NCBI GenBank assembly: GCA_030280995.1
Contig: JASXTE010000002.1
Coordinates: 25,641,683-25,705,682 of the forward strand
Source of the DNA: Hemileia vastatrix
Taxonomy: Eukaryota; Basidiomycota; Pucciniomycetes; Pucciniales; Zaghouaniaceae
Direction: 5' to 3'
DNA length: 64,000 bases
Positions 8,036-56,785 of the stretch are shown in pieces. Made by a program: the position numbers and the translations under genes. Numbering within the stretch: the first letter of the stretch is position 1; every line of letters begins with the position of its first letter. The notes under the pieces were generated by a model. That model was not told the DNA's origin. It saw only the letters and a program-made list of their open reading frames with translations, and made no database searches.

Positions 8036-8733
8036 TTAGAAAAGATAATTTCTTTGAAATTGTTCAACATCATTATCAATGCTTTGCATTAAAATTCTTC
8101 TTTTCATGAGGTCTTCATGGTTATTAGCTGGAGTTTCTTGAAAATAGGCCAGCATTTTTTGTTTCAATTCATTTGTAAAGTCAAGAAAAAGATAGCAATG
8201 AAAATTTGGATAATGATTAATATAGTCTGTCTTCACTTTGCCAACGTCATCAGTGTTGGTTATTTTGACAACTAGAAGTTCAAATATGTTATTAAGTTAT
8301 AGGTTTAGTCAATTTTGATTAAAAGTTTTTTTTAGTAAGATAATAGGGTCTTACATTTAGAGTCAGGAAACATAATCTCAGAAAAGTTGGTTGGGGGCAC
8401 TGGCGTTATAGGATTAGGATCTTGTGAAGGCAAAATTAGGCCAGGATCCGCTGAAGAAGATTGAACTTTTGACGTTGAAGCTGTTTTTGATCTTATTCGT
8501 TTTAAGAAGACAGGAATTTTTGATCGCTTTTTAGAAGTTGTGGTATCAGGGAGAGCTGCTGGTCCTAAATATACATTTGTTTTAGAAGGAACTATTGGAT
8601 GGTTACATTTGACTTTTTTCACACGGCATAAGTTGCAAGTGGTCCTGCCAGGAAGATTAGGGTTGGACATTAAACAAGGTACCTGGTAGCGTGCGCAGAG
8701 TTCACATGGAGCAACAAGTTCTTTGAAAGACAT
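8036..8733 (-). CDS. EA antisense gene A: double CX2CX6C (Zn2Cys6-like) protein, two exons
   Basis: The exons are 8733-8355 and 8271-8036 on the minus strand. The 83-bp intron starts GTAAGA and ends TTCTAG. The splice is in frame (phase 1) and gives about 204 residues. Cysteines at 10, 13, 20, 33, 36 and 43 form CX2CX6C, a 12-residue linker and CX2CX6C. The second half (C-R-V-K-K-V-K-C) looks like the basic half of a Gal4-type cluster. A basic Ser/Pro-rich middle follows. Exon 2 encodes a helical C-terminus. The gene runs opposite to the element and starts about 114 bp inside the polypurine tract. Its upstream DNA (CTCCCTCCAATTGAGAA) is shared with gene C of EC. The role is unknown; nuclear DNA binding is inferred from the cysteine pattern. 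Confidence 0.72.
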
Positions 8734-8846
8734 ATTGATGAAGATGAATTTTAAAGTTGATTGAAGAGGATGGTGGTTGAAGGTTAAAGATGAATATTGT
8801 GTTTGATCACTTATGCAAAGTTTAAAGAATGAGGACATTCTCAATT

Positions 8847-8856
8847 GGAGGGAGGA
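8847..8856 (+). other. EA polypurine tract
   Basis: GGAGGGAGGA lies directly before the LTR start TGTGG. EB has AGAGGGAGGA in the same place, and EC has the complementary tract at 13684-13693. Confidence 0.75.
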
Positions 8857-9984
8857 TGTGGTGGCCTAAAGTTTAGTATGGCACCCAAAATACGAAACTG
8901 GAGCTATTAAGATGTGCGAGATTGACGATGTTATTATTTTAAAAAGGGTTTTATTTAATTTATTTGAGTTTTAAATATGAAGAAATTGGTTAAACACGAA
9001 TGCCTACGCATAAAAAACAATTTATTTTACGGAGAAAACTTATTTTTACGGTCTGAAAAGCTTATAAGTATCAAGTCCAGTCACTCAAGAACCTTGAGAA
9101 ATTTTCCCAGAATTTTTACTATTTTTCTTATATTTTTAAATGAATTTTAAAGATTTATAGAAATATTTACGTTTTTAGAAATTACTTAACTTTGATGAAT
9201 TTTCACGGGGTGATTAGAGCTGGGCAGACTACAAAAATTAGTTGGGACTGTAAAATGGAAGTGGCTCTATCATGTGTAATTTTTCTAGATTTTTTATTAT
9301 ATTTTTAAGGTTCTAATTGAGTCCAGAGGTCCGGAAGGACTCTGCTTGGACTCCGGACGGACTCCGTACGAGCTCCGTACGGGCTCCTGATGGGCTCTGG
9401 CTGAGCTCTGGAGAGGAAAATTAGGCATGTGACTAGGTATACTTAAGAGACTCTCAGACTCGAAATTGGGCATCATCATACATCATACAGACATCATACA
9501 GCTTAATCTTTAACCACCACTGTCTTATTTTTTATTACTCAACAAATTAAATAAAATTTTAATACCCTTATAACTTTTTATTTTATATATAACATTTTAG
9601 AAATACTACTCAACATTTTAAATCACACTTCATACAGGGTATCTTTAGAAAGGTATTCATCACTGGGACTTGATTATTGCTGTCTCATAAAAACTCAAAT
9701 TATTATAAAAACATAAAAGTCAATCTTTTCAGATCTTTCACTGGTACACCTTAATTGTTGTTATCGGTATTTCTTTTTTCAACAGCCACAATCATTAAAT
9801 CTGAATAAGTGTTAAATTTCTCAGAGTTTCATAATATTATATTGCATCAGATTTAAATAGACTGGGTAGCTTAGTGATTTAGAACGCCTACTTTGTTATT
9901 TTTGTTGGAAGGACGGGGTTTTCAACTAAATCCACATATCTACGGATTCTGCTTACAGCAAGGCAACTGTAAGAGTTTACCATA
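8857..9984 (+). repeat. EA 3' LTR
   Basis: It starts TGTGGTGGCC and ends ...TTACCATA. Over its whole length it matches, in inverted orientation, the solo LTR at 30439-31547, which defines the boundaries. Near the 3' end CTTACAG pairs with CTGTAAG in a 7-bp hairpin. A CpG-rich minisatellite sits at 9309-9420. Confidence 0.82.
9309..9420 (+). repeat. CGG/CCG-rich 11-12 bp minisatellite in the EA LTR
   Basis: About seven degenerate units around GGACTCCGTACG follow each other in otherwise AT-rich LTR DNA. The solo LTR has the same block at 31038-31095 with variant units. CCG and CGG triplets occur in inverted pairs such as CCGTACGG. Confidence 0.65.
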
Positions 9985-9990
9985 CCATAA

Positions 9991-10002
9991 CGTTGGGCAC
10001 CA
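9991..10002 (-). other. Primer binding site of the head-to-head LTR fragment
   Basis: TGGTGCCCAACG on the minus strand lies just inside the LTR fragment that begins at 10007. EC has TGGCACCCAACG at its 5' LTR. The sequence fits a tRNA 3'-end binding site. Confidence 0.6.
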
Positions 10003-10006
10003 AATA

Positions 10007-10510: not shown

Positions 10511-10669
10511 AAAAAATCTAGAAGACTAAGATACTCTCCCTTCTATCTGGTTCTCCTACTCCAGACCTTTCCAACAATACCCTACATGCATAGGATCTAC
10601 AATAAACTATTGATATAACAAGCATAATAAATTCTAACCAAATTTTGCCACAATAGCCAAAATTTTCTG

Positions 10670-11000
10670 AAGTGACCAGACTTTTCACTGGTGATCAGAC
10701 TTTTCTACAGTGACCAAACTTTGCACTGGTGATCAGACTTTTCTACAGTGACCAAACTTTACCACAGTTCCCAGACTTTTCTGCAGTGACCAAACTTTGC
10801 ACTGGTGATCAGACTTTTCTACAGTGACCAAACTTTTCACTGGTTATCAGACTTTCACATTGTGAGAAAATTTGCCACAATGAGCTATTTTTCTATAATG
10901 AGCTTATTTTGCCATAATGAGCTAATTTGGCCAGAGTGAGATAAATTTTCCACAGTGAGTTAATTTTGTAACCATGACCAAACTTTTCCACAATGACAGA
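10670..11000 (+). repeat. Tandem array of a ~20-bp motif (CAGTGACCAAACTTTT-like)
   Basis: Units close to ACAGTGACCAAACTTT and GCACTGGTGATCAGACTTTT alternate, giving a higher-order period of about 38-39 bp. Degenerate copies continue to about 11000. CAGTG and CACTG in neighbouring units can pair. Confidence 0.75.
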
Positions 11001-12597: not shown

Positions 12598-13683
12598 TGT
12601 AGAAAATCCTATAGTACTAGCTATAGGCCTTGAATAAGGGAGTTGGAGCAGAACTTAAGAGAAAAACCCCTGTCCCTTTGAGAAATACCAGGTGAGACTT
12701 ATTTGCTACATAAAATTAGAGACTGTTACTATACCCCTTCCAACACACTTCTTGACTGCTTAACAAGTCAAGACAGTAGCCAATATCAGACCACTGAGAA
12801 CCAAAGAACCAGAAACCAGAAACGCAGAAAGATTCACACCAGAAAAATAAAACAGTGTGCACTTGTTGCAAAGAAAACAGCAATAATACTTGATGCAGGT
12901 TGCAAAGGTACACCAGAGAAACCAGTTGCCAAAGTTGAGTTAAATGAAGAACTAACCTTGCAAAAAACACAGCCAACTGTTTCCAAAAAACAGTGAAAAC
13001 TGAGCAAGAAACAATGATATCACCTCTGGATGGTTGTATGATTATTAAACTTGCCCCAAAATGTTTTATTCAGTATGTACACTCAGACCATCATCTAAAA
13101 AATCAATGCACAGAAACAAATTTGGCACTTTTGGCAACCAAATTGAATAAAAACACTCTAGAAGCTCTCCCCAGCCTTCTAAAACTGAGGAATGCGGCCC
13201 GCCTATAAGTGGCCAGACCTCCCTGAAGCCAGAAAACCACCAAAAACCCCCAATCAAGCCCAAAATACTTGGAAAAATCAACCACGACAACTAAAACCCT
13301 TAAAACACAAAAGTAAGCTATGACAATTTTGTGACATATAATATAGTGCTAAGTTAGCTCTACTTAATGGCTCTAAGCACTTAACCCTAAGACTTAAAGT
13401 TAGCCTGTAAAACATTCAAAACAAAATTAAACAGCTATCTTTTAGAAATTAAAAATGAGCAAACGACCCCTTAAAATTTAGAATATGAAGAATGTCATCA
13501 ATACATAAAATAGAAAGAAGAACCAGTTCCATCCAATGATAGTACCCACATACCCATAGTCCCAATATTCACTGAATAAAACCAGAAAAATATCCAATAA
13601 TTATTTAACCATTGTCAATTTAGACATACCAAAAAAGCGCCAAACAGACCAACAAAGGCCTCTGCCAATTTTGAAAAACCAAA
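12598..13683 (-). repeat. EC 3' LTR (left copy)
   Basis: It matches 37555-38483 from its left edge to about 13508. The remaining ~180 bp lead to the polypurine tract at 13684-13693. The left edge is TGTAGA. It interrupts a gag relic. Confidence 0.7.
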
Positions 13684-13731: not shown

Positions 13732-14248
13732 ATGTTCACACATTTTTCAAAACCCATCTCTGAAATGGGTCCCTGTCAATACTGTATTGACCATTACCTC
13801 ATCTGCACCATAACACCACCAATCAATCTATACAGAAATGCTTTTGACTCCTGCTATTCCAGAAAGAGATCTTGCTCCAGACCTGTTCTATTATCATCTG
13901 CAACAAATTCACCTCCCCCTCAACCTGGTCTATCTTCCAGCAAATTCAAAAGATCTAGGCCTTCCATCTTGATACCCAGATTAATCAACAAGTTAAACCC
14001 TTCCAAAAAGAGTTCCAAAACCACCAAAATCACAAGATCTACCATACCTTCTCCTTCTGATGGTAAAACCAATGCTTCTCCCTACTGAAATTTAAGCTGA
14101 TGAATTTCCAGTTCATTCCCATCCAGACAGTAATGATGACAGTGTGGGAACCATTGAAACACCACCACCCAATCAATTGCCCACCATCAAGGAAAAATTC
14201 CAAAAACACTCTTCTCAACAAAAACATCTCATTCTAAACTCCTTCTAA
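13732..14248 (+). CDS. EC antisense gene C: Zn2Cys6-like protein with one ligand lost, two exons
   Basis: The exons are 13732-14062 and 14112-14248, with a 49-bp intron (GTAAAA...CTGAT...CCAG). The phase-1 splice is in frame and gives about 155 residues. Cysteines at 15, 18 and 25 form the first CX2CX6C. In the second half Cys41 and Cys48 are present, but the expected first Cys is Phe38 after a 12-residue linker. A basic Ser/Pro/Lys-rich tail follows. Position, strand, intron phase and upstream sequence match gene A of EA. It starts about 40 bp inside the EC polypurine tract. The reading frame has survived in an otherwise ruined element. The lost ligand suggests it no longer folds as a full cluster. 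Confidence 0.62.
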
Positions 14249-14840: not shown

Positions 14841-14995
14841 TTCACACTTTTCATAAAACAGAAAGAGCCATTTCCATTCAAAATACTCTGAAACCACCCT
14901 ACTGAACTTCCACTTTCTCCTCATCATCTACACATCACTGATAAAACCTTTTTCTTTTATCTCTTTTCTCTTCATTGTTTTCTCATCACAAATCA

Positions 14996-16490
14996 TGGCT
15001 GGATTTCCAGATTTTGACCCATCAGACCTTCCTTGTCTCTCTGCTCTCAAGGGCTATGCTTGAAAACAGTGTATCCACATGTGCAGATTTTGAACCTTCA
15101 CTCTTCCAACTCCTGAAGCCAAACTCTATAACAGTGCCTGAGTTACTTGCAACTCCAAAAAGAAAAAATGAGACAGAAACCCCAATTATCCTATACCATC
15201 ACCTTCACCTTCACACAAAAACACCTCTAGATCTCCTACAAGGTCCCTAGAATTAGTTCCTGCTTCCTCTTCTCGATCTTCAGCTTTATCCAGAAGATCA
15301 TGCTGCTCTGTCCCCAGAACTCTCTCTAAAAGACCTGCTTTATCATCCCAAAAAACATCCTTTATCTCAGAAAATTCAGCTAAAACAGCTTCAAAATAAG
15401 CTCCCAGGCTTCTAGACTGCATCCAGGTTGCCCGCTAACCTCACTAGGAAGCAGGAATTAGGCTCAAAACTTCCAAATTCAACCAGAAAACAGCCAAAAT
15501 CCACCAGTAAACAACAACAAATCCACATAACAACCTCCTAGAGCTCCCAGAGCAATGCACACAACAATTTTTTCATCAAAAATTACCAAATACTCTAAAA
15601 GTTCTAGAAGACCTGCAAAAGGACCTCAAGAAGGCACCAGAACACCAAACACTTCCCCCAAACAAAATTCTCCCTCTCAATCAATAAGATTTAACTACAC
15701 CTCTTCTCTAACAGCCAATTACTCTTCTGAAAGTTCCATTTCTTCGAGATCTTCATCCAGAAGATCCCAAGCAGCTTCAGGTCACCTTCTCCTGGTCCAA
15801 CCTACAACAACCCTGGTACTTCACCACCATTGTCCAACCCAACTGGGCCAATCAATAATATCCACAACAACAACAGCAGCCCTGCTGCTCCAACCAGGCA
15901 ACAGGAATGCCCTCCTTCTAGTCCATATTCACAACACCATTTAGAGAATGATCATGAGAATCCATACCTCCATCTGGTTAATCCTCCTACAACATGCATT
16001 CAGAATTCTTCAACATCCCAAATCCCTGCCGCTTAAAAATTTTAAGAGCTCCCAATCTGTAAGTACCAAGTTAATATATCCAATTTCTTTAGCCAAAAAC
16101 AATTACTGGTCCCATTTCTTCTGTTTAGTTGCAAAACTTCCTCCTGAAACTGAAATTAGGATTGTCCAACCTCTAGTAACTAATTTAAAGCTCAATTAAG
16201 CCAACATGAAACAATGCCTAAGCATGATGTGTTATAACATGCTTAAGGCCTTTTCTCTTTATGGTTGTTTGAATGAATTTGAAAAGAATCTGCAGAAACA
16301 GTTACTTGAAGACCACTTGAAGATGTCTAGAATAATCAAGCACACCTTCCAACACCCTATCCCCGCTTCATCCACTTCTTCCCAAAAATTACCTTCTAAT
16401 CCAGTCACTGAACATTACAACCCATATACTCTTTCTAGCCATCTACATTACAAAGAGCACAGTTCTTCCTCCAATCCTAAAAAAAAGTAA
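14996..16490 (+). pseudogene. Possible decayed second antisense gene of EC
   Basis: An ATG at 14996 opens a short frame ending in TGA. Downstream, broken frames encode Ser/Pro/Arg-rich peptides (15190-15430 and 15555-15944), and a last frame (16206-16490) has a helical stretch and a Lys-rich end. Position and strand match the second antisense gene B1 of EB. No clear cysteine cluster remains and the exon structure is not recoverable by eye, so this is tentative. Confidence 0.3.
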
Positions 16491-22869: not shown

Positions 22870-24203
22870 TGTGGTACGCTTCTCGCAGGAAGCGTGATTT
22901 TTAACCAATCTTCGCGCGTAGTCCAGGAAGAACAAAGGGGAGCTAGTGCAGCAGGAAATTTTAAAATATAATATGTATTTGCGTGTTTCAAGGAACAAAG
23001 GAAATGGAAGCGCGGAGAAAGATTGAGGGTCTGTGCGCTCGGATTTTGTAGCAAAATGTGCCACACAATGGGGAATTGTGTGTTATTGATTTAGGACCAT
23101 AAAGCGCTAAACAATATGGATTTGGGCTTTCCAAAAGGTATGTGTTACGCATTAAGAAGAAAGTCATGGATTAAGGACAACTCAAGTGCATGGTATGCTG
23201 CACCCCGGCCAGTTGGGAAACTTACCGAGACAAGTAATAAAAAAGGCTAACTAGTAAAGCAAGCTGTCAGAACTACGAACCTAGTATTAAAGCAAAGAGA
23301 GTGGGGACTCAATCGTAAAACTACCCAAGAGCTAAGGCAACTAGACGCAGCGTGAGGATAAGTCAAACATGGAACTAGTGCTGAAACAAAATAAGGTATA
23401 GTTAAAAGTGCATATGTGGAGAATCAGTGAAACAAGTTAATACTAGTGTTAGTAATAATAGGGTCTGATTTAGGCGCTGTAGTTGTTGCAAGCAGTGTAA
23501 CTAGAATACTAATAAATTATTTATTGTTTTACTAATGTGGCGCTAGAGTCAGTGCTGGAGATCCATTAGGGAACTGTGTCTTGAGGGCCGGAAGAATATA
23601 AAAGGAGGACTATTAGATAGGGACAAGGAGAGAACTGGTCAATCTATCTATTTAGTTAATAAAATAAGAAAAATCACATTAGTTGTCATTTTTAAAAAGC
23701 AGATCATAAAGAAAATCAATATAGAGATATATGTGTAGCTATAGTCATAGTACCCAGTATAAGATATTAGATCATTTGTGATTAATTGTTGAGAGAATAT
23801 TAAAAGGTATTTTCTGAGTCTTTAGAGTTTGTGCATCTGTGTGTGTATTTCCTATAGTATAGTGAAAGAGCGCACCATAGAGAGAATATATAGATTCAGT
23901 GGGATTAACTATTATTAGAGATATTTTATAACTATAATAAGGCAAATTCAAAGAGAGCGCTTAAAGAGGGAGTAGCTGTGGATAATAGCGCTTGTTAAGA
24001 ATAGAAATATCCAGATAGTAGTGCTTGTTTCCTTATCTTTAACTCATCTCAACTTATAAACTTTCTAGTCAAATATTAGTGTTACACATTATTACACTGT
24101 CTTTAAAAAATAAGAGTGGCAGGCACTTCTTTTTATAAATTAAAAAGGAGAACCAACCCATCTCGCATTGTGTCTACTGCTTAGAACTTTAGAACTGTCT
24201 ACA
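22870..24203 (+). repeat. EB 5' LTR
   Basis: Same length (1334 bp) as 34019-35352, with several dozen visible differences at most, many of them CG versus CA/TG. A TATAAAAGG box lies at 23597-23605. Confidence 0.92.
23597..23605 (+). promoter_or_regulatory. EB LTR TATA box
   Basis: TATAAAAGG follows GGCCGGAAGAA. The 3' LTR copy is at 34746-34754. The E2 LTR (41897-41905) and the E4 LTRs (minus strand, 55321-55329 and 62986-62994) have the same nine bases. Confidence 0.65.
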
Positions 24204-26600: not shown

Positions 26601-28592
26601 GTGAATATAGCGATACCTGATTTGAATCCTCCTTTGCAGAGGCCGGCACTATCTAGAAATCCTTATGATACACCTTTAACAAAGTTTCCGCCTGATTTTG
26701 CATTCACCAGTAAGATCATGATGGAAAGGCTTCAGATGGTAGATTTTGGACCAGAGGGCTGGTTATTGCAGGAAGAAAAGAAGTTATTATTACATGTTAT
26801 GGCTCTTAGGGAAAAGGCTATTGCGTTTTCAGAAGAGGAAAGATGTTTGTTAAAACACTCTTATGGTAAACCTTATATTGTTCCAGTTATACCTCATGCG
26901 CCATGGCAAAAGAAGGCTTTTCCAATACCAGCGGCTATAAGAGAAGAGTATACGCAATTAATTAGGGGAAGGTTAAAGTCCGGCTTGTATGAACAGTCTA
27001 TGTCTAGTTATTCAAGTCCAGTGTTTTGTGTGGTCAAACATAATGGTAAATTAAGGGTTGTTCATGATCTTAGGGAGATGAACAAGGTTACGGTAAAGGG
27101 TGCAGGTATGCCACCAACACCAGAAGAATTTGTGGAATCTTTTGCGGGGCGTGCATGTTACGGATTAGGTGATATTATGGGAGGATACAATGAGCGCGAG
27201 TTGGACAAATTGTCCAGACCCATGACGACGTTTGAAACACCACTGGGGTGCTTTAGGTTGACAAGGTTACTGCAAGGCGCAACAAATTCTGTGGCGGTAT
27301 ATCAAGCACAGATGATGTGGATATTGCAGGATGAAATCCCAGAACATGTGGGAATTTTCATTGATGAAGGCGGTATAAAAGGACCAGCCAGTGATTATGA
27401 AGGGGGGGTGTTAAAAGAAAATCCGTATATTAGAAAGTTTTTTTGGGAATATGGGATTACCCTGGAAAGAGTGCTATTTAGGATAGAGGAGGCAGGATTA
27501 ACGATTTCTGGGTTTAAATTTGCCTGTTGTGTTCCAGCGCTAGATATAGTGGGACATGTGGTATGTAAGGAAGGGAGAATCATCGCTGAAAAACAGAGGA
27601 ATAAGGTACTTACATGGCCAAGACCAAGAAATACTAAGGAAGTTAGAGGGTTTTTAGGCATTTGTACATATGTAAGAATGTTTATTCGAGATTTTGCTTT
27701 GATGTCTTTGCCTTTACGGCGCTTAACAAGAAAGGATGTTGTATGGGATTGGACGGAGGAAGGTGAGGAGTCATTCGAGTTATTAAAGAGGAATGTAGGA
27801 AAAGATATTCTTTTGAAGAAATTGGAGTATGGACCAGGCGCTGGAAAAATTACTCTAGCAGTGGATTCTAGTGTGTCCGCGGTGGGCGCAGTTTTGATGC
27901 AGGAGGACGAAGAAGGTAATGATAGACCTGTCCTTTACGAGTCCAAGACTTTTACCAAAGTGGAGTCTAGGTACTCCCAGTCCAAGCTGGAGTTATGTGG
28001 AGTAGCGAAGATCCTTAAAAAGCTACAATGGATGCTTTGGGGGCAGCATTTCGAGCTGCAGGTTGATGCGCTATCGTTGGTGCAAATGATTAGTAGCCCG
28101 AGTTTACCAGATGCGCCCATGACGAGGTGGGTAGCGCAGATTAATTTGTTTTCTTTTGATTTAGTCCATAAGCCAGGGAAATCTTTCACTATGCCAGATG
28201 CGCTGTCAAGAAGACCGTTGTGTGAAGAAGACTCGGAAGTGGAAGAATTTGAAGAAGATAAGAGATGGGTAAATGGGATAGATTATTGTTATACAAAATT
28301 TGGCAAGAACGTCCGCAACAACGATAAAGTATCAAGCAAGAATGTCTGCGAAGACCATAAACTAGATTTTTGTAGCAAGGTTGAACTGCAACTGGATTTA
28401 GGGAACACTGAAGCTAATGTAGCGACAAGGAGTGCACAAGGCGAGGAAGTGGAGGAGTCAGAGGATGGAGATACTTCAAAGGGAAGTCAGGATAGTAGTA
28501 CTCAACTTGAAGAGGGGGAGTATTTAGAAGACAACGCATCTACAGATGAGGGAGTAGAGTTGTTAAAGTTATATTTGGAAGGTAATAGTTGA
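26601..28592 (+). CDS. EB reverse transcriptase-RNase H, altered active site
   Basis: The 663-codon frame covers the RT N-terminal region (residues 1-130), fingers and palm (V-H-D-L-R-E-M-N near 155), the active site at 27357-27368, a thumb region, and RNase H (A-V-D-S-S about 415, with the E-L helix following). The active site reads F-I-D-E rather than F-I-D-D as in EC, so the second catalytic Asp is Glu. The L-P-F-G motif is replaced by L-L-Q-G-A-T-N-S. An acidic tail follows RNase H before integrase. The long open frame suggests fairly recent activity. Glu at this position would be expected to cut polymerase activity strongly. Confidence 0.8.
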   Translation: MNIAIPDLNPPLQRPALSRNPYDTPLTKFPPDFAFTSKIMMERLQMVDFGPEGWLLQEEKKLLLHVMALREKAIAFSEEERCLLKHSYGKPYIVPVIPHAPWQKKAFPIPAAIREEYTQLIRGRLKSGLYEQSMSSYSSPVFCVVKHNGKLRVVHDLREMNKVTVKGAGMPPTPEEFVESFAGRACYGLGDIMGGYNERELDKLSRPMTTFETPLGCFRLTRLLQGATNSVAVYQAQMMWILQDEIPEHVGIFIDEGGIKGPASDYEGGVLKENPYIRKFFWEYGITLERVLFRIEEAGLTISGFKFACCVPALDIVGHVVCKEGRIIAEKQRNKVLTWPRPRNTKEVRGFLGICTYVRMFIRDFALMSLPLRRLTRKDVVWDWTEEGEESFELLKRNVGKDILLKKLEYGPGAGKITLAVDSSVSAVGAVLMQEDEEGNDRPVLYESKTFTKVESRYSQSKLELCGVAKILKKLQWMLWGQHFELQVDALSLVQMISSPSLPDAPMTRWVAQINLFSFDLVHKPGKSFTMPDALSRRPLCEEDSEVEEFEEDKRWVNGIDYCYTKFGKNVRNNDKVSSKNVCEDHKLDFCSKVELQLDLGNTEANVATRSAQGEEVEESEDGDTSKGSQDSSTQLEEGEYLEDNASTDEGVELLKLYLEGNS

Positions 28593-29837
28593 CCAGATTT
28601 TTGAGATAAAAAGGTTTGGCGCAATATTAAAAGGCGCGCTAAAGGCTATTTTATTAAAAATGGGAAGTTATGGAAGAATCAAGCATTGTCTCCTCAGTTA
28701 GTTATTCAAACTAGGGAAGGGAAGGAGAAGATACTCAGGGAGTTACACAAGAATTTAGGACATAGAGGTCAAGATGAGACTTGTCGCAGAGTTAGGGAAA
28801 GATTCTGGTAGCCCAACATGAAAAATGAAGTAAGAGATTGGGTTAAATCTTGTCCTGAATGCCAGTGCAGAAGTTACAGAAAGCCAAAAGAAAAAGGGAG
28901 AGCGACAGGCGAGGATACTGTTTTTGGTAGGGTCAGTTTAGATGCAGTCCATATAAAACAAGGACACTTTAAATACCTGGTAGTAGCCAGGGATGATCTA
29001 TCAGGATGGGTTGAAGCACCGCCGTTGATAAACCTCAAGGCAAGTAATGTGTCCGAGTTTTTGAAGAAAGAATGGATTTATAGGTATGGGGTAATGAAGA
29101 TGGTAACCGTAGATGGTGGTGCTGAATTTTTGGGAGAATTCCAAGAAGTAGTAAAAGGTATTGGCGCAAAGTTACGAGTTGCAACACCATATTATCCTGA
29201 AGCAGAGGGAACGGTAGAAAGAGGGCATCAAGTTATAAAAGATGCGCTAGTTAAGTTATGTGGAAATAATGGGGCGAAGTGGAAGAACTACTTGTCATTA
29301 GTTTTGTTTGCGGACAGGATTTAAGTTAAAAGGACAACAGGGTTTTCGCCGTTAGAGCTTATGTTTGGTCAAAGGGTGGTATTACCTATTGATCTGGAGG
29401 CTGGATCTTTCCTAGGATGTGATTGGGATCAAGTGCGCTCAACCAAAGATTTAATTCTAGCAAGGGTAGCGCAACTTGAAAGAAAAGACGAGTTTGTGGA
29501 GAAAGCGTATGAAAGAATGATGCAGATCCGGGACAAGTCAGTTAAATATTGGGATGAGCACTTGGCGCATAGGTTAAGAAAGCCATTGAACCCAGGAGAT
29601 TTGGTTTTGGTTTATAATAGAAGTTTAGAAAGCCAATGGGGGAAGATGTTTTCTGACAGATGGAATGGTCCTTATAGGATAAGAAAGCAGATAACTGGAG
29701 GGTCTTACTTACTGGAGGAATTAGATGGTACTGAGTGGAAGCGGCGTGTGGCCGCAGACCAGATCAAAAGATTCTACCCACGGGGTGTTCTAGTGATACA
29801 AGATAGCCTCCGAAATAAGGATAAACTACCAGAATAA
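28593..29837 (+). pseudogene. EB integrase with G-P-Y module
   Basis: Reading on from RNase H there are two TGA codons, a TAG at W (near 28809) and a TAA near 29323. Between them the protein is complete: H-K-N-L-G-H with C-P-E-C, then catalytic Asp in S-L-D-A-V-H, Asp in V-D-G-G-A-E-F and Glu in E-G-T-V-E-R. The C-terminal part has W-N-G-P-Y-R-I and ends R-N-K-D-K-L-P-E. No chromodomain is present, unlike E2-E4. The open pieces are 28818-29324 and 29361-29837. Confidence 0.8.
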
Positions 29838-31558: not shown

Positions 31559-32358
31559 CTATTCAGTATCAGGATGAAAGCTAATAGGATATCCTTTCCA
31601 GTCTTCAGGCATGACAAAGTGACGGGGATCAGCAGGGAATCCAAGAATAGTCGTTGAGCTGATTTTGTTCATTAGTTGACCTATCATTTCTATATGAGTA
31701 TAGCAAGCTTCAAGTTCAGCCTCAGAAAAAGCTGGTGCGTTATTGTAGGATAGGGACATAGCATCATATATAAGACGAAGTCTGGAAAACATTTGCATGG
31801 AATGGACAAAAGGTAAAGGAATGGGAACCCATCCCAAGGAGATGGATTCATTGAAACCTGAGAGGAAGTTAGTAAGCAAGAAGAGCATAAGTATTGTGAA
31901 GGATGCTTACTTGCTAATAAGTTTTGTGGGTGCGCTGACGGTGAAGTAACAGTAACCGCGTCAGGAGCAGCTGTAGGGGAGCCTGAGCGCATGGAAGCAC
32001 TGGAACTCGGAGGGGGAGAAAGTGTAGCGCTAGGCTGTATGGATATTTGGCACCTGGGAAAACTAGGAAGTGATGGCGACTCATAAGGAACATTATTATT
32101 ATTAGTGGAAATAGCGGGACTAGTGGTGGTAATTATGGGAGCGCTACTAATAGAGCTAGGTGGAAAGCGAATATAACCAGTAGGCTGAAGAGTATTCTGG
32201 TTAAGGGAGGTATTGCAAGTTTTGTGGTATCTAAAGCAATTATCACAGGCAGGTCTAAAAGAGGCATAACCCCGAGGTCTAGAAAATGTACAGTTAAAGT
32301 TACGGCGTTTGCAAAATGAGCAAGCTTGATCTCCGGGAACTGTGCGATATTGAGTCAT
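31559..32358 (-). CDS. EB antisense gene B1: double CX2CX6C (Zn2Cys6-like) protein, two exons
   Basis: The exons are 32358-31911 and 31857-31559. The 53-bp intron has GTAAGC, a CTTACTAAC branch site and CTCAG. The phase-1 splice is in frame and gives 248 residues. Cysteines at 13, 16, 23, 38, 41 and 48 form CX2CX6C, a 14-residue linker and CX2CX6C, with basic residues after each CX2C (K-R-R; R-Y-H-K). A long Ser/Pro/Thr-rich middle follows, and exon 2 adds a helical C-terminus. A TATA-like TATAAATA lies at 32397-32404. The reading frame is fully intact although EB gag and pol are broken. The solo LTR begins 11 bp past the stop. Nuclear DNA binding is inferred from the cysteine pattern only. 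Confidence 0.75.
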
Positions 32359-32842: not shown

Positions 32843-33895
32843 TTAGTGGTATTCTTCTTCATCAAAGATTGGGACGCAGATAGCCCAATTGTTAACAGCT
32901 TCTTGCATGTTTTGTTGCAAGGCAGCTATTAGTTGTTTTCGCTTATTATACTCAGCGCGAGTATAAACCGGAACCTCCTCAAGGAATGTTTCAATGGCCC
33001 CAATCATGTTATTCATACGACGCATGGTCGCATCGTAAGGAGCGCAGGCGATTTGTTCTGCAAATTCCCAGTTTTGAGCCATGGCGGGCTCATCCTCATC
33101 TACTACCGAAAAGTTATCGGTTGGCCACTCGACCGGAGTGAGGGTATTGAAGACCGGCTGCATATCAGACCAGTCAGGAGTGGGCGAACGAGGAGTAGGT
33201 GTCGTATCCCAGGTGGGATCTTCTTCCAAGGTAGGAAGGAATAGTGGAGTGATAGGAGGCAGAGGCCTTTCAGCGTAAGGAGTATCTGGTGCATCCTACA
33301 TAGTAAAAAAAAAAAAAAAAAAAAAAAAAGGGGAAAAAGAGAATGTTAGTATTAGAAAGGGAAGAAGTAAGAAAAAGAAACTTACTGTACTTTCCTCCGA
33401 GAAAAGATATTTAGGGACAGAAGCGACGCTACTAGGAGTAGGCTCGCGGTAACCAACCTTGGTTCGTTTGTTACTAGGTGGGGTAACAGGAGCAGGCTCC
33501 GGGCACTTGATGGTCATTTGACTCATCATATTTGTCGTAGAAGCATTTGGGTCCAGGCGCGCTACGGTGGGAAGCCCATTGTAACTGCATTTCTTCTTGC
33601 GTTGCTTGCAGTAATCGCATGACTAGGAATAAATGAAAAATGAAAAGGTTAGAAACAAATGGGAAGGAGAATGAAGAGAGCTTACAGTGAAGAAAGTATT
33701 GCCACAGTGGGATTTTGAAAAATGTCATGGAGTTATGCCATTTTTGATGCAACAAGTGCATCTCGTCCCACCCATCAGTGTGGTTATGGGCGTTGTTGGG
33801 GAAGCAGTAGGGGGCTGAGTGCGCACGAACTGTCAAATAGCGTCCACGACGTTGGTGGTATTTTCAGCGTTAGTAGGGGTTCTTCTGGTATTCAT
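32843..33895 (-). pseudogene. EB antisense gene B2: second Cys-cluster gene, three exons, two in-frame TGA
   Basis: The exons are 33895-33686, 33622-33386 and 33295-32843. The introns (63 and 90 bp) have GTAAGC/GTAAGT donors and TAG acceptors, and all junctions are phase 0 and in frame, about 299 codons. Exon 2 opens with S-C-D-Y-C-K-Q-R-K-K-K-C, a classic Zn2Cys6-type half. Exon 1 has C-T-C-C, and a TGA at codon 57 lies where the third ligand would be. Another TGA is at codon 21. Exon 3 is acidic and helical. The gene is nearest the 3' LTR, as are genes A, C and D. The splice structure is well kept, so the two TGA codons look like recent nonsense changes. Confidence 0.65.
33304..33329 (+). 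repeat. Poly-A run inside B2 intron 2
   Basis: About 26 consecutive A on plus (T on the transcript strand) lie between the B2 exon 2 donor and exon 3 acceptor, forming a long polypyrimidine tract. Confidence 0.8.
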
Positions 33896-34018: not shown

Positions 34019-35352
34019 TGTGGTACGCGCCTGGCAGGAAACGTGATTTTAGACCAATCATTGCACGTAGTCCAGGAAGAACAAAGGGGAGCTAGCGCAG
34101 TAGGAAATTTTAAAATATAATATGTATTTGCGTGTTTCAAGGAACAAAGGAAATGGAAGCGCAGAAAAAGATTGAGGGTCTGTGTGCTTGGATTTTGTAG
34201 CGAAATGTGCCGCACAATGGGGAATTGTGTCTTATTGATTTAGGACCATAAAGCGCTAAACAATATGGATTTGGGCTTTCCAAAAGGTATGTGTTACACA
34301 TTAAGAAGAAAGTCATGGATTAAGGACAACTCAAGTGCATGGTATGCTGCACCGTGGCCAGTTGGGAAACTTACCGAGACAAGTAATAAAGAAGGCTAAC
34401 TAGTAAAGCAAGCTGTCAGAACTATGAACCTAGTATTAAAGCAAAGAGAGTGGGGAATCAATCGTAAAACTACCCGAGAGTTAAGGAAACTAGAAGCAGT
34501 GTGAGAATAAGTCAAACCTGGAACTAGCGCTGAAACAAAACAAGGTATAGTTAAAAGCGCATATGTGGAGAATAAGTGAAACAAGTTAATACTAGTGTTA
34601 GTTATGATAGGGTCTGATTTAGGCGCTGTAGTTGTTGCAAGAAGTGTAACTAGAATACTAATAAATTAGTTATTGTTTTACTAATGTGGCGCTAGAGTCA
34701 GTGCTGGAGATCCATTAGGGAACTGTGTCTTGAGGGCCGGAAGAATATAAAAGGAGGACTATTAGATAGGGACAAGGAGAGAACTGGTCAATCTATCTAT
34801 TTAGTTAATAAAATAAGAAAAATCATATTAGTTGTCATTTTTAAAAAGCAGATCATAAAGAAAATCAATATAGAGATATATGTGTAGCTATAGTCATAGT
34901 ACCCAGTATAAGATATTAGATCATTTGTGATTAATTGTTGAGAGAATATTAAAAGGTATTTTCTGAGTCTTTAGAGTTTGTGCGTCTGTGTGTGTATTTC
35001 CTATAGTATAGTGAAAGAGCGCAACACAGAGAGAATATATAGATTCAGTGGGATTAACTATTATTAGAGATATTTTATTACATTAATAAGGCAAATTCAA
35101 AGAGAGCGCTTCAAGAGGGAGTAGCTGTGGATAATAGCGCTTGTTAAGAATAGAAATATCCGGATAGTAGTGCTTGTTTCCTTATCTTTAACTCATCTCA
35201 ACTTATAAACTTTCTAATCAAATATTAGTGTTACACATTATTACACTGTCTTTAAAAAATAAGAGTGGCAGGCACTTCTTTTTATAAATTAAAAAGGAGA
35301 ACCAACCCATCTCGCATTGTGTCTACTGCTTAGAACTTTAGAACTGTCTACA
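34019..35352 (+). repeat. EB 3' LTR
   Basis: Matches 22870-24203 at the same length (1334 bp). It is followed by CCGT, the target duplication, and then by the EC protease coding sequence. Confidence 0.92.
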
Positions 35353-49317: not shown

Positions 49318-49333
49318 TGGGGGTCTTTCCTTA
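49318..49333 (+). other. E3 primer binding site
   Basis: TGGGGGTCTTTCCTT starts two bases after the LTR end and matches the E2 site apart from one internal base and the far end. Confidence 0.6.
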
Positions 49334-52127: not shown

Positions 52128-52879
52128 GAAGATACTGTGCTTTTGGTCTTAACTTTAAAGACAATGACAAATTCACGCATGATTGGGTAACCCTTATCCC
52201 AGGTTTAGAATTTGCATATAATAGTACAGTACATTCTGTCACTGGCAAAAAGCCATTTGAGTTATGGTTGGGTTATGTACCTAATACCCCTGCTAAAACT
52301 CTTAATAAGTTACCTAGATTGGATATTCATCCAGGTACTAAATCTTTTCTTCAGATGCAAGAATTATGCAGAAAACATGCTCAAGAATGTATAAATAAGG
52401 CTTTTGAGTATGAAAAGAAAAGATGGGATAAAGCCCATAAAGAACAAATGTTCAAAGAGGGTGATGAAGTCCTTATTTCAACGCTACATTTCAATTTAAA
52501 TGGTAATGTTAAATTGAAGGATCCATTCATTGGAACATTTGTAGTTAAAAAGATGGTTGGTAATAATGCTGTTGAGGTTATTCTATATGCACCTTATGAT
52601 AGAAAACATCCAGTATTTCCTATTTCTCTTATAAAACCATACCATTCTAATGATACTGCTCTCTTTCCAAGAAGATCAGGAAGGCATAAACAGCAACCTG
52701 AAGAAATAGTGGAAAAAGCAGAAATTGAAAAGATACTTAAAAAGAGACACCTTACAAAAGAAAAGGGAGTTGAGTATCTACTAAGATTAAAAAATAAATC
52801 AAGTGAATATGACCAGTGGATTCCAGAAAATGAAATCTCTGATCTTAAAAATCTCTTGAAAAAATTTAAATCTAAATAA
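52128..52879 (+). pseudogene. E3 integrase C-terminal end with chromodomain, after deletion
   Basis: Sequence from R-R-Y-C-A-F-G onward matches E2 integrase, but the start of integrase and all earlier pol is gone. The open part (52268-52879) contains D-I-H-P-G-T-K-S, a G-T-F module, and a chromodomain-like end (I-V-E-K-A-E-I-E-K-I-L to W-I-P-E-N-E-I-S). At the junction an ATA is shared by both sides. With no start linked to gag it is probably untranslated. Confidence 0.8.
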
Positions 52880-52980
52880 TACTGTTCATTCAGTATATGT
52901 ATTATAAAAATTATTTTTTATTTTTTATTTCATTCCTTAAGATTAATTAAAATGTCTTAACATTTTTTTTTGTTTTTTTT

Positions 52981-52992
52981 GGGGTGAGGGAG
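52981..52992 (+). other. E3 polypurine tract
   Basis: GGGGTGAGGGAG directly precedes the 3' LTR. E2 has GGGTGGGCGAG at 54879-54889. Confidence 0.65.
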
Positions 52993-54170
52993 TGTCAGCC
53001 TAAATATCCTTAGGACTGAGTATTTCTTATGTTTAAAATAAGATAACCTTAACTAGATTAAGCTTATATCTTAAAAATAAGGTTAAAATAATAATATATA
53101 TTATTTTATTATATATATATATAATTATTATTCTATTATATAATTTATAATAGTTTAAATAGCTTATCCATGGCCTAATAATACTTATTAAGGTGTTAAT
53201 GGAGTCATAATATACTTATCTTAAGTGATATGAAGTAATTATTGACATACATAAGCTTATATGTATACATAAATCTCATATTCAGTGAAATATGCAGTAT
53301 ATTATGTATATTTAGGTATATAAGTGGGTTTTAGCCCCTTAATAGCCTATAACCTTTGTTTTTCTGCTTATTTTAGGTCATATGGACGAAATCAGTGGAT
53401 TCACAACGCCTACAGAAGCATAGACACCTATATCAGGCGCATACACCCAGTTTGGACAAACTAAAATTACTTCCTTGGATGGTTATTCACGGATTTATGG
53501 GTTGGAAAGATGTTTCTGGGTTAATGTGGATGCTTGGGGATGTTATTGGGGGCTTGGACATTTTATTTGTTTCCTTTATATGCTTTTAGTTTCATTAAAT
53601 CTCTTTTTGATCTTTTATTTTACCTGTTTCTTTATGGTATCCGCTTTTATCTGGGATTTCTATTTATGGTATGACTCTGTGTTATTATTAATAGTGATGG
53701 AGGGTCCTTACTGGAGGTCTGGGTGTTGAAACTGCTTGAAGTGGACGCCATGGGGAGGTGATGGGCCCTCACAGTGCTGTAATTGCCGGGGATAGCAGTG
53801 ACATCATCTGGATTGAAGGTCTGTGCACTCCAGTGGATTTGGGTATAAGTAAGGAGGGATTTTGACGGTTTATTATCATCATTCAATTACTACACTTCAA
53901 ACAAACATTACACTACAATTATTAACATTCAGAAATATATTATAAAGCCCTTATAAATTGATATTATCTTTATAATAGCTATAACTATATTTTATTCTTC
54001 TATTTTCCACCACTAGCACGCATTTAAATCCAAGTATTGTGAGTTTAATTTGAGTATAACTATTCTATTAGTCTTCCCCTGAGGTTTAATCACTAAATCA
54101 TTTATTAATAAGTAGTAGGACCATAAAATAACACTATTATATCATACTTATATACTAGACTGTACTGACA
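52993..54170 (+). repeat. E3 3' LTR
   Basis: 1178 bp, one visible difference from the 5' LTR. Followed by AAATC (54171-54175), the right target duplication. Confidence 0.93.
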
Positions 54171-54710
54171 AAATCCTTTATTCATATGCAACAAATGTGT
54201 AGAAAGCATGCTGAAGAATGCATACAAAAAGCATTTGAATATGAAAAGAAAAGGTGGGACAAATCTCATAAAGAATTTGAATTTAAAAAGGGAGATGAAG
54301 TTCTCATATCAACCCTACATTTTAACTTACAAGGTAATTTTAAATTAAAGGATCCCTTTGTAGGACCTTTTGTAGTAAACAAAATGGTTGGTAATAATGC
54401 AGTGGAAGTCATATTATATGCTCCATATGATAGGAAACATCCAGTTTTCCCTATCTCATTATTAAAACCTTACCATGCAAATTATCCTGACTTATTTCCA
54501 AAAAGAAGGGGAAGGCCTAAAAAGCAACCTGAAGAAATTGTGGAAAAAGCAGAGATTGAAAAAATACTCAAGAAAAGAATCCTTACTAAAGAAAAAGGAA
54601 CTGAGTATTTACTAAGATTTAAAGGGAAATCAAATGAATTTGATAAATGGATACCTGAAAAAGAAATTTCTAATTTATCCACCCTTCTTAAGAAATTTAA
54701 ACAGAAATAA
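54171..54710 (+). pseudogene. E2 integrase C-terminal domain and chromodomain (right of E3)
   Basis: It continues K-S-F-I-H-M-Q-Q from the P-G-T-K-S break at 48137 in the same frame. It contains K-R-R-W-D-K, a G-P-F-V-V module and a chromodomain-like end (I-V-E-K-A-E-I-E-K-I-L, Y-L-L-R-F-K-G-K, W-I-P-E-K-E-I-S), then a TAA at 54708-54710. Chromodomains steer integration to modified chromatin in this clade. Confidence 0.85.
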
Positions 54711-54889
54711 ATTTCTGTTTAACCAGCTGAGGGGTTAAAAACCAGTACTCATAATATTTTATTATGTTTTATTTCTTTAAAGTTTAATCTTTAATGCTAC
54801 AGAATTATTCTGAATACCTGAAAATTACAAATAAATAAATAAAATGTATAACTTATCATTTTTTTTATTGTTTTTTTTGGGTGGGCGAG
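54711..54889 (+). other. E2 3' untranslated stretch and polypurine tract
   Basis: AT-rich, ending in a T run and then GGGTGGGCGAG just before the 3' LTR. Confidence 0.6.
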
Positions 54890-54954
54890 TGTCAGCCTGT
54901 ATATCCCCAGGACTGAGTAAAAAGTGCTTATAAGTTATGTTAAACACATGAACT
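54890..54954 (+). repeat. E2 3' LTR, first 65 bp
   Basis: TGTCAGCCTGTATATCCCC matches 40727 onward. It ends at GAACT (54950-54954), the E4 target duplication. Confidence 0.9.
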
Positions 54955-55726
54955 TGTCACCGGACGACCTACGCACAAGGTTGAGGATGTTCCTGAAAGT
55001 GAGATGAGAAATTTAGAAACAACTTCAAAGCACAGAGGAATGATTCGAGGAAATGGTTCGAAGGTCACTCGAAGTAAGAGCTACAGGTTCGAGGTTCGTT
55101 CGAGAAGAATTATAGACTAGTTTCAAAGGTAATAGTAATTCTTAAAATCTCACGAAGGGTTGGAAACTCAATAATCAAAGATTTAGGATTTAGAAATGAA
55201 TATTGAGAAAATAAAAGAAAGATACAATAACAATGATTTTAACTTTAAAGATTTACCACTATTAATGTAAATACGATTTTATAATTTAATTCTAAGGAAT
55301 ATCGAACCAAATACCCAACCCCTTTTATATCCTTTGTTCCTCCTCGCATTGACCTCCCTTCCATCGCACCATTCCCATTCCATTGACCATTACTAACATA
55401 CACTTAGACCCTCTTTGCTAAATATCCGTCCATGCTCAATTTACCCCTTTTTAATTAATTAACAAAACTTTAATGAAAACTACTACTGTACTATTTCGTT
55501 GAACCTAGCGCTGTGCGTCGCTTATTGAAAAGGACTAAGGCACCCTATTGGGAGATTTACTAATTTAGATTTAGAGTTTAGGCTAGCGCAGTTAAATAGT
55601 AAGTACACAAAGGAAAATTGCAGTTGCTATGGAGAATTGCTTTCTGCGCTTCGAGTATATATTTAGGACTCGATATTATTGATTTAATGAGCTGCTTTCG
55701 CCTCGAGTGTCATGTGGCGCGTGACA
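54955..55726 (-). repeat. E4 3' LTR (left copy)
   Basis: 772 bp, matching 62620-63391 with a modest number of differences, several of them CG versus CA or TG. A minus-strand TATAAAAGG lies at 55321-55329. Confidence 0.93.
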
Positions 55727-55736
55727 GATGCCCGGG

Positions 55737-55742
55737 TATAAG
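55737..55742 (+). promoter_or_regulatory. Gene D TATA-like box
   Basis: TATAAG lies about 95 bp upstream of the gene D ATG and only 10 bp inside the LTR. Confidence 0.4.
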
Positions 55743-55835
55743 AATTGCGAACTCCGTTGAGCTTGAGCCATCTTCCCACACTAGTTTCCCTTCTTCTATA
55801 ATTTTTTCCTCACTTATTATTATCTCTTTTTTATA

Positions 55836-56785
55836 ATGAGCTGCCCCACTCCCACACCTACGCCTCCACACCCTAAAGCGGATGGGGGAATGATTACGCG
55901 ACAGTTTTCACAAACTTGCACCGCTTGTGAAAGCATGGAGTATTTCTGTGTCGAAAGTAAGGTGACTCAAGGCCCTCGCCAGAAATGCGAGTTTTGCCGT
56001 TGGCGACGAGTGGTGTGCGATGTGTTGACAAAGAACGCAGAGATCGAAAAGCGATTCACCAAGACCAAGTTTTGGGTAATCCCTAAAACCAAAGAGGTGG
56101 TCCAAGACATTTGGGATGTCTCGATTGAAGATGAACAATCGGTGGGGGAAAAGGATAAGGAATTAAATAAACAGATCTCAACCTGGGTAACCCAGGCCAC
56201 GAGTTCGAAGCAAGGTGTCAAGGAAGAGGTCGACGAGTTGGTGGAGGAAGATGAAGATGAAGTCCCTGTTCCAGGTCGGGCACCCAAGAAACGATGGGTG
56301 GTCATCGAAGACAACGAGGAGGAGAGAGAGGCAGAGGTCGAAGTGGCGCCAAGGTTATTTTTAGAGCCTGACCCCATCTTCGAGGTAAGTTTTAATTGTT
56401 ATTTTTAAGGATGAAGTTACTGATGAGTTTTGTTTAGACATCGAATACCCTTGAAGAGCCAATTGGGGAGCCTGCGCCGGTTATAACAACTGAGGCAAAC
56501 CCTCCGGCCATGGAAGTAGTTGAAGAACCTGAAGACACCCTGGACCAGGTGTGGTCGAAGAAACCTCGTCAAGGTCGACGAGTAAGGTTTGCGGAAGAGT
56601 TATGTGGGGAGGTCGACACAATTATTGACGCTGCTTCCTTCGACGTGGCAGAGGAGCTCTTGGAGATCGAAGAGGTGGTTCCAGTAGGAGAGGAGGAGGT
56701 ATTTGAGAAATGCAGGAAGGAGATAAGGGTAGTTTTGGAGAAAATGAAAAGATTGGGTCGAGAAAAATTAAAAGAAAAGATTTGA
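55836..56785 (+). CDS. E4 antisense gene D: double CX2CX6C (Zn2Cys6-like) protein, two exons
   Basis: The exons are 55836-56384 and 56438-56785. The 53-bp intron has GTAAGT, a CTGAT branch site 13-17 bases before the acceptor, and TTTAG. The phase-0 splice is in frame and gives about 298 residues. Cysteines at 28, 31, 38, 51, 54 and 61 form CX2CX6C, a 12-residue linker and CX2CX6C, the second half reading C-E-F-C-R-W-R-R-V-V-C. The rest is acidic, with a basic G-R-R-V-R-F patch in exon 2 and a charged helical end. It lies between the end of pol and the 3' LTR, opposite to pol. The frame is intact while pol has four stops. DNA binding is inferred. Confidence 0.75.

What the first reader, a model, noticed from the sequence alone, without database searches (positions are those of the whole stretch)
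8036..56785. Antisense Zn2Cys6-like genes sit between pol and the 3' LTR in four different elements
Genes A (EA), B1 and B2 (EB), C (EC) and D (E4) all run opposite to their element and lie between pol and the 3' LTR. All have introns that splice in frame. All carry C-X2-C-X6-C, a linker of 12-14 residues and C-X2-C-X6-C, or a damaged form of it. EB and EC belong to one lineage and E4 to a chromovirus lineage, so the module is shared or spread between lineages. A, B1 and D have intact frames while pol is broken or lost. Zn2Cys6 proteins bind DNA in fungi, so a self-regulator, silencing antagonist or host-gene controller is possible. I know of no described system like this, which is not proof of novelty.
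Basis: partly seen in the sequence, partly recalled or inferred. Interest (0 to 1): 0.86.

Follow-up and report, generated by a model that had tools for sequence, protein, structure and literature searches.

The report
Antisense zinc-cluster genes in fungal retrotransposons
Two distant families of LTR retrotransposons in what looks like a giant fungal genome carry small, apparently spliced genes on their reverse strand that encode proteins with an unusual zinc-cluster DNA-binding motif, kept by selection at least in one family, which suggests that these parasites encode their own nuclear regulators.

Summary
The core observation holds. Antisense genes with a double C-X2-C-X6-C module lie between pol and the 3' LTR in EB, EC and E4; EA is a pol-less remnant, but 4 of 4 relatives fetched have pol in place. 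D: 30 of 30 copies (the window's own included) keep a GTAAGT...AG intron, dN/dS is 0.11 (exon 1) and 0.24 (exon 2, outside the query), and the 3' LTR ends 87-110 bp before the ATG in 30 of 30. A: intron in 13 of 13, frame open in 10; constraint weaker. New here: the EA/EB/EC lineage has two tandem antisense genes, and by Pfam the zinc-cluster halves lie in reversed order (9 hits among 22 pieces, all swapped). Corrections: B1 is damaged, EC holds two genes, no chromodomain was found for E4. Antisense accessory genes are known in plant Grande/RIRE2/Retand, fungal Boty and HTLV-1 (HBZ); a reversed binuclear zinc cluster in this role I have not seen described. Best explanation: an element-encoded DNA-binding self-regulator made from the element's own antisense promoter. 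Expression and function are untested.

The parts
8355..8733 (-). Gene A exon 1: 126 codons with CELCARYQVPC-X12-CNLCRVKKVKC
   Evidence: 150 of 7785 first-look candidates scored, 87-100% identical
8272..8354 (-). Gene A intron, GTAAG...CTTCTAG
   Evidence: GTAAG in 13 of 13 copies, 3' AG in 12 of 13
8036..8271 (-). Gene A exon 2, to stop; spliced protein 204 aa
   Evidence: Frame open when the exons are joined in 10 of 13 copies; one of the ten, L058, lacks the 3' AG
8857..9992 (+). LTR-type repeat taken as 3' LTR of EA; begins about 124 bp from the ATG of A
   Evidence: 86.8% identical, inverted, to 30436-31547; purine tract GAGGGAGGA before TGTGG shared with EC
12600..13507 (-). 3' LTR of EB (matched part; inner edge probably near 13682)
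   Evidence: 87.0% to 37557-38481; tract TCCTCCCTCCAATTGAGAA as in EA just inside
13732..14248 (+). Gene B1 (antisense in EB), exons about 13732-14062 and 14112-14248; damaged
   Evidence: Module CQYCIDHYLIC...FDSCYSRKRSC lacks one Cys; splice sites read from one sequence only
14968..16126 (+). Gene B2 (antisense in EB), broken, matches in three pieces
   Evidence: tblastn with L049 ORF, 55-62% identity
17977..20840 (-). EB pol (RT, RNase H, integrase parts), broken
22870..24203 (+). EC 5' LTR
   Evidence: 96.3% to 34019-35352
26601..29837 (+). EC pol
31559..32358 (-). Gene C1 (antisense in EC): exons 31911-32358 and 31559-31857; 248 aa, open when spliced
   Evidence: CSFCKRRNFNC...CDNCFRYHKTC; branch-like TTACTAAC; TATAAATAG about 40 bp before the ATG
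32843..33895 (-). Gene C2 (antisense in EC, LTR-proximal): exons 33686-33895, 33386-33622, 32843-33295; two in-frame TGA in exon 1, first half of module incomplete
   Evidence: Read; second half matches Zn_clus positions 2-16, 21.3 bits, cut-off 21
34019..35352 (+). EC 3' LTR
54955..55728 (-). E4 3' LTR (TGTCAC...GTGACA; target-site duplication GAACT)
   Evidence: 97.5% to 62620-63393
55735..55742 (+). TATA-type box of gene D at the inner edge of the 3' LTR, about 95-100 bp before the ATG
   Evidence: TATAA readable in 29 of 30 copies (alignment)
55836..56384 (+). Gene D exon 1: 183 codons with CTACESMEYFC-X12-CEFCRWRRVVC
   Evidence: 150 of 6886 first-look candidates scored, 88-100% identical
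56385..56437 (+). Gene D intron, GTAAGT...TACTGATG...TTTAG
   Evidence: 30 of 30 copies; intron 53-75 nt while exon lengths stay 549 and 348/349
56438..56785 (+). Gene D exon 2 to stop; spliced protein 298 aa
   Evidence: dN/dS 0.24 over 435 pairs, outside the search query
58216..62549 (-). E4 gag and pol
   Evidence: Retrotrans_gag, RT, RNase H, integrase
62620..63391 (-). E4 5' LTR

Best explanation
These are true accessory genes of two Ty3/gypsy-type lineages, each a small RNA polymerase II gene of its own on the reverse strand next to the 3' LTR. SHOWN by sequence: fixed position beside the 3' LTR, conserved introns oriented for antisense RNA, purifying selection on the protein (clear in D, weaker in A), thousands of candidate copies. 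INFERRED: transcription starts at a promoter at the inner edge of the 3' LTR (TATA-type in D); the mRNA is spliced; the protein folds as a binuclear zinc cluster whose basic half comes second, enters the nucleus, binds DNA and tunes transcription of the element's own gag-pol (repression or latency as HBZ does, or activation; the sign is open). The antisense position would explain how introns survive retrotransposition: the sense genomic RNA that is copied shows no such splice sites there.
Against: No expression data. No target site known: CGG/CCG triplets are not enriched in the LTRs (E4 3 against 11.0 expected, EA 14 against 8.9, EC 7 against 8.7, EB 2 against 2.5). D gives no Zn_clus match in either half and its model failed (pLDDT 34). 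In A the intron (0.024) and upstream stretch (0.039) differ between copies no more than codon positions 1-2 of the exons (0.028-0.041), so constraint there rests on pN/pS alone. Copies were ranked by exon-1 protein similarity, which biases exon-1 ratios down (exon 2 is free of this). 17 of 30 D and 3 of 13 A copies are not open. A third pol lineage shows no antisense module in 4 of 4 copies looked at, so not every element has the gene.
Confidence: 0.55

Rival explanations
1. The protein acts after transcription: a nuclear cofactor of the pre-integration complex or an integration-site adaptor, doing the job that a chromodomain does in other elements.
For: In the window the two elements with a Chromo match (E2 ORF 54186-54710, E3 ORF 52268-52879) show no double motif, while one D-family pol frame has no Chromo match at E<=0.01. 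Grande GENE23 is nuclear (PMC7264820).
Against: Tiny sample; a gene with its own promoter, apart from gag-pol, suits a regulator better; the L001-type lineage shows no antisense module (4 of 4) and its chromodomain status was not checked.
Confidence: 0.15
2. Anti-silencing factor: the protein binds its own element family and keeps it free of heterochromatin or small-RNA silencing, like VANC proteins of plant VANDAL transposons (recalled, no call).
For: High copy number (6886 and 7785 first-look candidates), DNA-binding-type module, probable own promoter, two paralogues per element in one lineage.
Against: No chromatin, methylation or small-RNA data; no binding motif looked for beyond CGG.
Confidence: 0.2
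3. The antisense RNA, not the protein, is the functional product (double-stranded RNA control), and the frame is incidental.
For: Antisense non-coding transcripts of retroelements are known (PMC7264820).
Against: Frame-keeping exons beside a length-variable intron and dN/dS 0.11-0.24 in D point to a selected protein.
Confidence: 0.05
4. A captured host gene carried passively, decaying after capture.
For: Introns and a fungal-type module could come from a host gene; 17 of 30 D and 3 of 13 A copies are not open.
Against: Purifying selection in D, fixed position, presence in several related element families and in a remote lineage.
Confidence: 0.05

Closest known systems
Plant antisense accessory ORFs (aORF-3R): maize Grande gene23, rice RIRE2, Silene Retand (TRP28), bean PvRetro13
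   Same: Antisense, between pol and 3' LTR, kept in most copies; Grande gene23 has its own promoter and a nuclear product; TRP28 is predicted to bind DNA (PMC7264820 parts 1 and 2 of 3; PMC11963269 passages)
   Different: No zinc cluster is mentioned in what I read; here introns are conserved, and one lineage has two tandem paralogues; host looks fungal
Boty/BcGypsy1 of Botrytis cinerea, antisense gene brtn (Zhao et al. 2011, Virology; not held, known only from PMC7264820 and PMC8365987)
   Same: Fungal gypsy element with an additional antisense gene between pol and 3' LTR
   Different: I could not see the brtn protein, so its relation to this module is untested; the passages I saw mention no zinc cluster, tandem genes or introns for it
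HTLV-1 HBZ and APH-2/3/4
   Same: Spliced antisense gene at the 3' LTR encoding a nuclear regulator; APH-3 and APH-4 are listed as inhibiting LTR activity (PMC10186651 passages)
   Different: bZIP domain in HBZ and none in APH proteins, not a zinc cluster; HBZ transcription starts inside the 3' LTR, while in D a TATA-type box lies at its inner edge; no homology claimed
Fungal Zn2Cys6 (GAL4/PPR1) transcription factors, Pfam PF00172
   Same: Six-cysteine spacing; halves match the family profile; A model resembles GAL4/PPR1 cores
   Different: Basic half is C-terminal instead of N-terminal; short proteins; encoded by retrotransposons

Membership tests
Antisense accessory gene of an LTR retrotransposon (aORF-3R) | Opposite strand to gag-pol, between pol and 3' LTR | tested here: met
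   E4, EB, EC in the window; D 11 of 12 close pairs with RT; A 4 of 4 fetched. The 9 of 9 stretches (E4 and 8 loci) were chosen as RT-D pairs and are no independent test
Antisense accessory gene of an LTR retrotransposon (aORF-3R) | Present and conserved in most copies of the family | tested here: inconclusive
   Thousands of first-look candidates and selection, but copies were found through the gene itself, so the share of elements with it was not measured
Antisense accessory gene of an LTR retrotransposon (aORF-3R) | Antisense transcript | not testable with these tools
   No expression data
Zn2Cys6 (PF00172) binuclear cluster protein | Six cysteines C-X2-C-X6-C-X(5-16)-C-X2-C-X(6-8)-C (spacing recalled, no call) | tested here: met
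   A 13 of 13 copies; C1 and D; gene 2 of L063-L065; L049. B1 has lost one and C2 is incomplete
Zn2Cys6 (PF00172) binuclear cluster protein | Whole-domain match over the Pfam cut-off in family order (basic half first) | tested here: not met
   Whole ORFs below cut-off (A 20.1, C1 14.8 against 21 bits; D none; L049 none); halves match in swapped order only, 9 hits among 22 pieces
Zn2Cys6 (PF00172) binuclear cluster protein | Two-helix binuclear cluster fold | tested here: inconclusive
Zn2Cys6 (PF00172) binuclear cluster protein | Zinc and DNA binding | not testable with these tools
   Needs the bench
HBZ-type self-regulator (works like, not member of) | Product represses or tunes the element's own sense promoter | not testable with these tools
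   No CGG enrichment in the LTRs gives no support
Chromovirus (E4) | Chromodomain at integrase C-terminus | tested here: inconclusive
   No Chromo match at E<=0.01 in the 721-codon pol frame of L046; found in E2 and E3; no tree against reference chromoviruses made

The most novel reading that the evidence does not exclude
Fungal LTR retrotransposons have built a new class of transcription factor: a binuclear zinc cluster with its halves in reversed order, expressed from the element's own antisense promoter and spliced, duplicated into two tandem paralogues in one lineage and present in a second lineage only 24-28% identical in RT, forming an element-encoded regulatory circuit that controls thousands of copies in trans.
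Probability: 0.3. Interest if true: 0.82.

Novelty: new variant of a known kind. Interest (0 to 1): 0.64.

Why it matters
It would show that antisense regulatory genes of the HBZ type arose in retrotransposons outside animals and plants, with a DNA-binding module typical of fungi. It suggests a simple rule for how a retroelement can keep introns (encode them on the strand whose spliced RNA is not the one reverse-transcribed). It also makes the old question of what antisense accessory genes do testable, because the protein has a recognisable module and many natural copies, intact and broken, to compare. A reversed zinc cluster may mean that other fungal genomes hide such genes below Pfam's cut-off.

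Tried and rejected
Chance: 3 double motifs seen, 0 in 60 simulated windows, rejected.

Gene A in the element whose pol lies at 9-1691: rejected, that pol is on the minus strand.

Homology of the C-terminal parts: shuffles hinted at it (C2 exon 3 against A exon 2 z 3.3, against D exon 2 z 3.7; A exon 2 against D exon 2 z -0.7), but profile comparison does not support it (probability below 1%). One search used wrong frames for B1 exon 2 and C1 exon 2; those rows are void. One search is circular (alignment A2 contains D) and was replaced.

D structure: mean pLDDT 34, not used. Public protein search: no hit for D exon 1 (65 candidates, E<=0.01) or A exon 1 (3 candidates, E<=0.1); I do not know how many fungi that collection holds, so this says nothing about other fungi. 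No Chromo match was listed for L046.

Reversed order by structure: the structural alignments run in plain sequence order (model 7-46 on GAL4 8-41), which the pseudo-symmetry of the cluster allows; they neither support nor refute the swap. It rests on the Pfam pieces and on the weak PPR1 alignment (E 0.21).

CGG sites in LTRs: no enrichment. The string count used GTATAAG (13 of 30, on gap-stripped rows); read on the printed alignment, TATAA is present in 29 of 30.

One search was a hand-picked subset of rows and is superseded (all 150 and 150 rows). Papers: nine searches; among the titles and abstract starts listed, none is about an antisense zinc-cluster gene in an LTR element. In one search the 20 of 158 papers listed had no occurrence of 'circularly permuted'; the rest were not seen. 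Searches returned none.
Full report
WHAT IS THERE. The window lies in a 748-Mb assembly of 791 contigs. Hit coordinates show 18 contigs reaching beyond 20 Mb; this, the size and the AT-rich window (GC 27-42% per 2 kb) fit a rust fungus, but that is inference and no name was available. The window is a stack of nested LTR elements: EC (LTRs 22870-24203 and 34019-35352, 96.3% identical) sits inside EB (minus strand, LTR parts 12600-13507 and 37557-38481, 87.0%), and E4 (minus strand, 54955-63391, LTRs 97.5% identical, duplication GAACT) sits inside another element, E2, that also holds a young element E3 with 99.9% identical LTRs.

THE GENES. D: exons 55836-56384 and 56438-56785, 298 aa, CTACESMEYFC-X12-CEFCRWRRVVC. 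A: exons 8355-8733 and 8036-8271, 204 aa, CELCARYQVPC-X12-CNLCRVKKVKC. EC has two antisense genes, C2 near the LTR (three exons, two in-frame TGA, incomplete first half of the module) and C1 (two exons, 248 aa, open), both read. EB has B1 (one cysteine lost, early stop) and B2 (broken). Four relatives of EA were fetched (L063-L066, chosen among the 150 scored A hits). They have pol in sense, 67-73% identical to EC pol (L064 shows only the integrase part within the stretch), then the A gene antisense in 4 of 4, and a second antisense gene with CKYCAFTHRECIFTFNW.(K/N)HTYNR.CLSCYEKKRKC in 3 of 4. So the EA/EB/EC lineage carries two tandem antisense genes. Their modules are partly related beyond the cysteines: with cysteine-fixed shuffles, B1 against L063 gene 2, B1 against L049, C1 against L049 and L049 against L063 gene 2 are reached by 0 of 1000; A against L049 by 3, A against B1 by 4, B1 against C1 by 10, C1 against L063 gene 2 by 103, A against L063 gene 2 by 148, A against C1 by 170.

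LINKAGE. D is a resident of its element. Of 12 pairs of independently scored RT and D hits within 10 kb, 11 have D 3419-3650 bp downstream of RT on the opposite strand; the twelfth is 7989 bp away on the same strand (0.6 pairs expected). Eight of these 11 were fetched and, with E4, show pol followed by antisense D, exon-1 frame open over 190-204 codons in 8 of 9 and 159 in L039; they were chosen as pairs, so this describes them and is no further proof. The E4-type LTR ends 87-110 bp before the ATG in 30 of 30 D loci, the window's own included. In A the purine tract and LTR start lie about 124 bp before the ATG, and the tract is recognisable, with single changes in three, in 13 of 13 aligned copies.

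SELECTION AND SPLICING. Across 30 D copies (the window's own included) exon 1 is 549 nt in 30 of 30, exon 2 is 348 or 349 nt, the intron 53-75 nt, GTAAGT 30 of 30 and AG 30 of 30. Pairwise divergence by codon position is 0.036/0.025/0.132 in exon 1 and 0.034/0.035/0.084 in exon 2, against about 0.08 upstream and 0.06-0.07 downstream. NG86 dN/dS over 435 pairs: 0.107 (exon 1) and 0.238 (exon 2; bootstrap on 10 sequences 0.11-0.33). Exon 1 was the search query, which favours conserved copies; exon 2 was not. 13 of 30 D copies are open to the normal stop, 17 are not. A, 12 fetched copies and the window's: 10 of 13 open when the exons are joined (one of the ten, L058, has lost the 3' AG), six cysteines 13 of 13, pN/pS 0.47 and 0.41, an in-frame 6-nt difference in 4. 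The A copies are close to each other, and their intron (0.024) and upstream stretch (0.039) differ no more than codon positions 1-2 (0.028-0.041), so constraint is less clear than in D. No intronless copy was seen among the 43.

PROMOTER. D copies have TATAA at the inner edge of the 3' LTR in 29 of 30. By eye, C1 has TATAAATAG about 40 bp and C2 CATAAATATT about 90 bp before the ATG; A and B1 show no clear TATA. Transcription is not shown.

THE MODULE. Pieces of 24-43 residues, one half each (one L063 piece also reaches into the second half), were scanned against all 24,736 Pfam models: 4 of 10, 2 of 6 (which also held one whole ORF with no hit) and 3 of 6 gave a hit, each to Zn_clus and to nothing else. 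Second halves of A, C2, L049, L051, L063 and L064 match profile positions 1-16 (E 6.4e-5 to 0.039; three of them over the 21-bit cut-off); first halves of B1, C1 and L063 match positions 17-36 (E 0.0039 to 0.1). That is the reverse of family order in 9 of 9 hits. The four D pieces and nine others gave none. The hits are mostly weak one by one and not independent, and since the two halves are pseudo-symmetric the safest wording is that the basic half comes second. A PPR1 alignment shows the same swap at E 0.21. AlphaFold2 of A is confident for about residues 1-50; Foldseek's first eight rows are Pho7, Hap1, Leu3, Put3, GAL4 and PPR1 at E 0.6-3.9, and structural alignment runs in plain sequence order, which leaves the swap untested. 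D shares the cysteine spacing and linker length with A (41 ungapped columns, probability 64%, E 6.6e-5), but 42 of 1000 cysteine-fixed shuffles reach the A-D score, and D against B1, C1, L049 and L063 gene 2 is matched by 320-731 of 1000. So common origin of the two lineages' modules is possible but not proven.

DISTRIBUTION. RT identity: EC-EB 66%, EC to the E4 family 24-28%, E4-E2 35%, L001-type to the E4 family 39-48%. Downstream of the RT of four L001-type copies (L047-L050, of eight L001-type loci held) no antisense double motif was seen within 8.4 kb; L050 holds a nested insert, and L049 holds a B2-like gene on the sense strand of that stretch, 5.9 kb away, probably from a neighbouring element. 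The canonical Zn_clus profile over the whole genome gives 13 matches (150 of 3262 candidates scored), 12 of them on contigs that carry none of the RT, D or A hits listed.

MECHANISM. The most economical reading is an element-encoded nuclear regulator expressed from the reverse strand. Steps shown: gene structure, position, selection (D). Steps inferred: transcription, splicing in vivo, zinc and DNA binding, effect on the sense promoter. Lack of CGG enrichment in the LTRs speaks against a plain GAL4-like site there, but a rearranged cluster need not read CGG.

KNOWN WORK. [quoted passage not shown] PMC11963269 (passages) describes Retand TRP28; PMC10186651 (passages) describes HBZ and APH proteins; PMC8365987 (passages) names brtn in BcGypsy1. 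The kind is therefore known; the domain, its reversed order, the conserved introns and the tandem pair are what is new here as far as these sources go.

Noticed in passing
48138-54171: Young nested element E3: LTRs 99.9% identical, a 757-codon ORF without Pfam match at E<=0.01 and a chromodomain ORF (52268-52879); no double motif.
   Followed up: partly
40787-64000: E2, host of E3 and E4, with chromodomain ORF 54186-54710 after pol; no double motif of its own seen. Chromodomain and antisense gene seem to exclude each other in this very small sample.
   Followed up: partly
30436-31547 and 8857-9992: Same LTR family in inverted orientation; the first looks like a solo LTR inside EC beside gene C1; 9510-10469 is also an imperfect palindrome.
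   Followed up: no
10599-10902: Short tandem array with 19-bp period.
   Followed up: no
21282-22317: 447-bp tandem repeats, 86-94% alike, in the 5' coding part of EB.
   Followed up: no
L049:5918-7114: Open 399-codon frame with the module CKQCIHMCRPC...CDSCYSKKKKC, a relative of broken B2.
   Followed up: partly
L050:2024-7368: Very young insert with 684-bp repeats 100% identical and a 1310-codon frame opposite to the neighbouring pol.
   Followed up: no
G000 contigs C472, C511, C313, C446, C632, C698, C520, C89, C696, C738, C104: 12 of 13 canonical Zn_clus matches lie on contigs that carry none of the listed RT, D or A hits; they may be unplaced pieces or contaminants.
   Followed up: no
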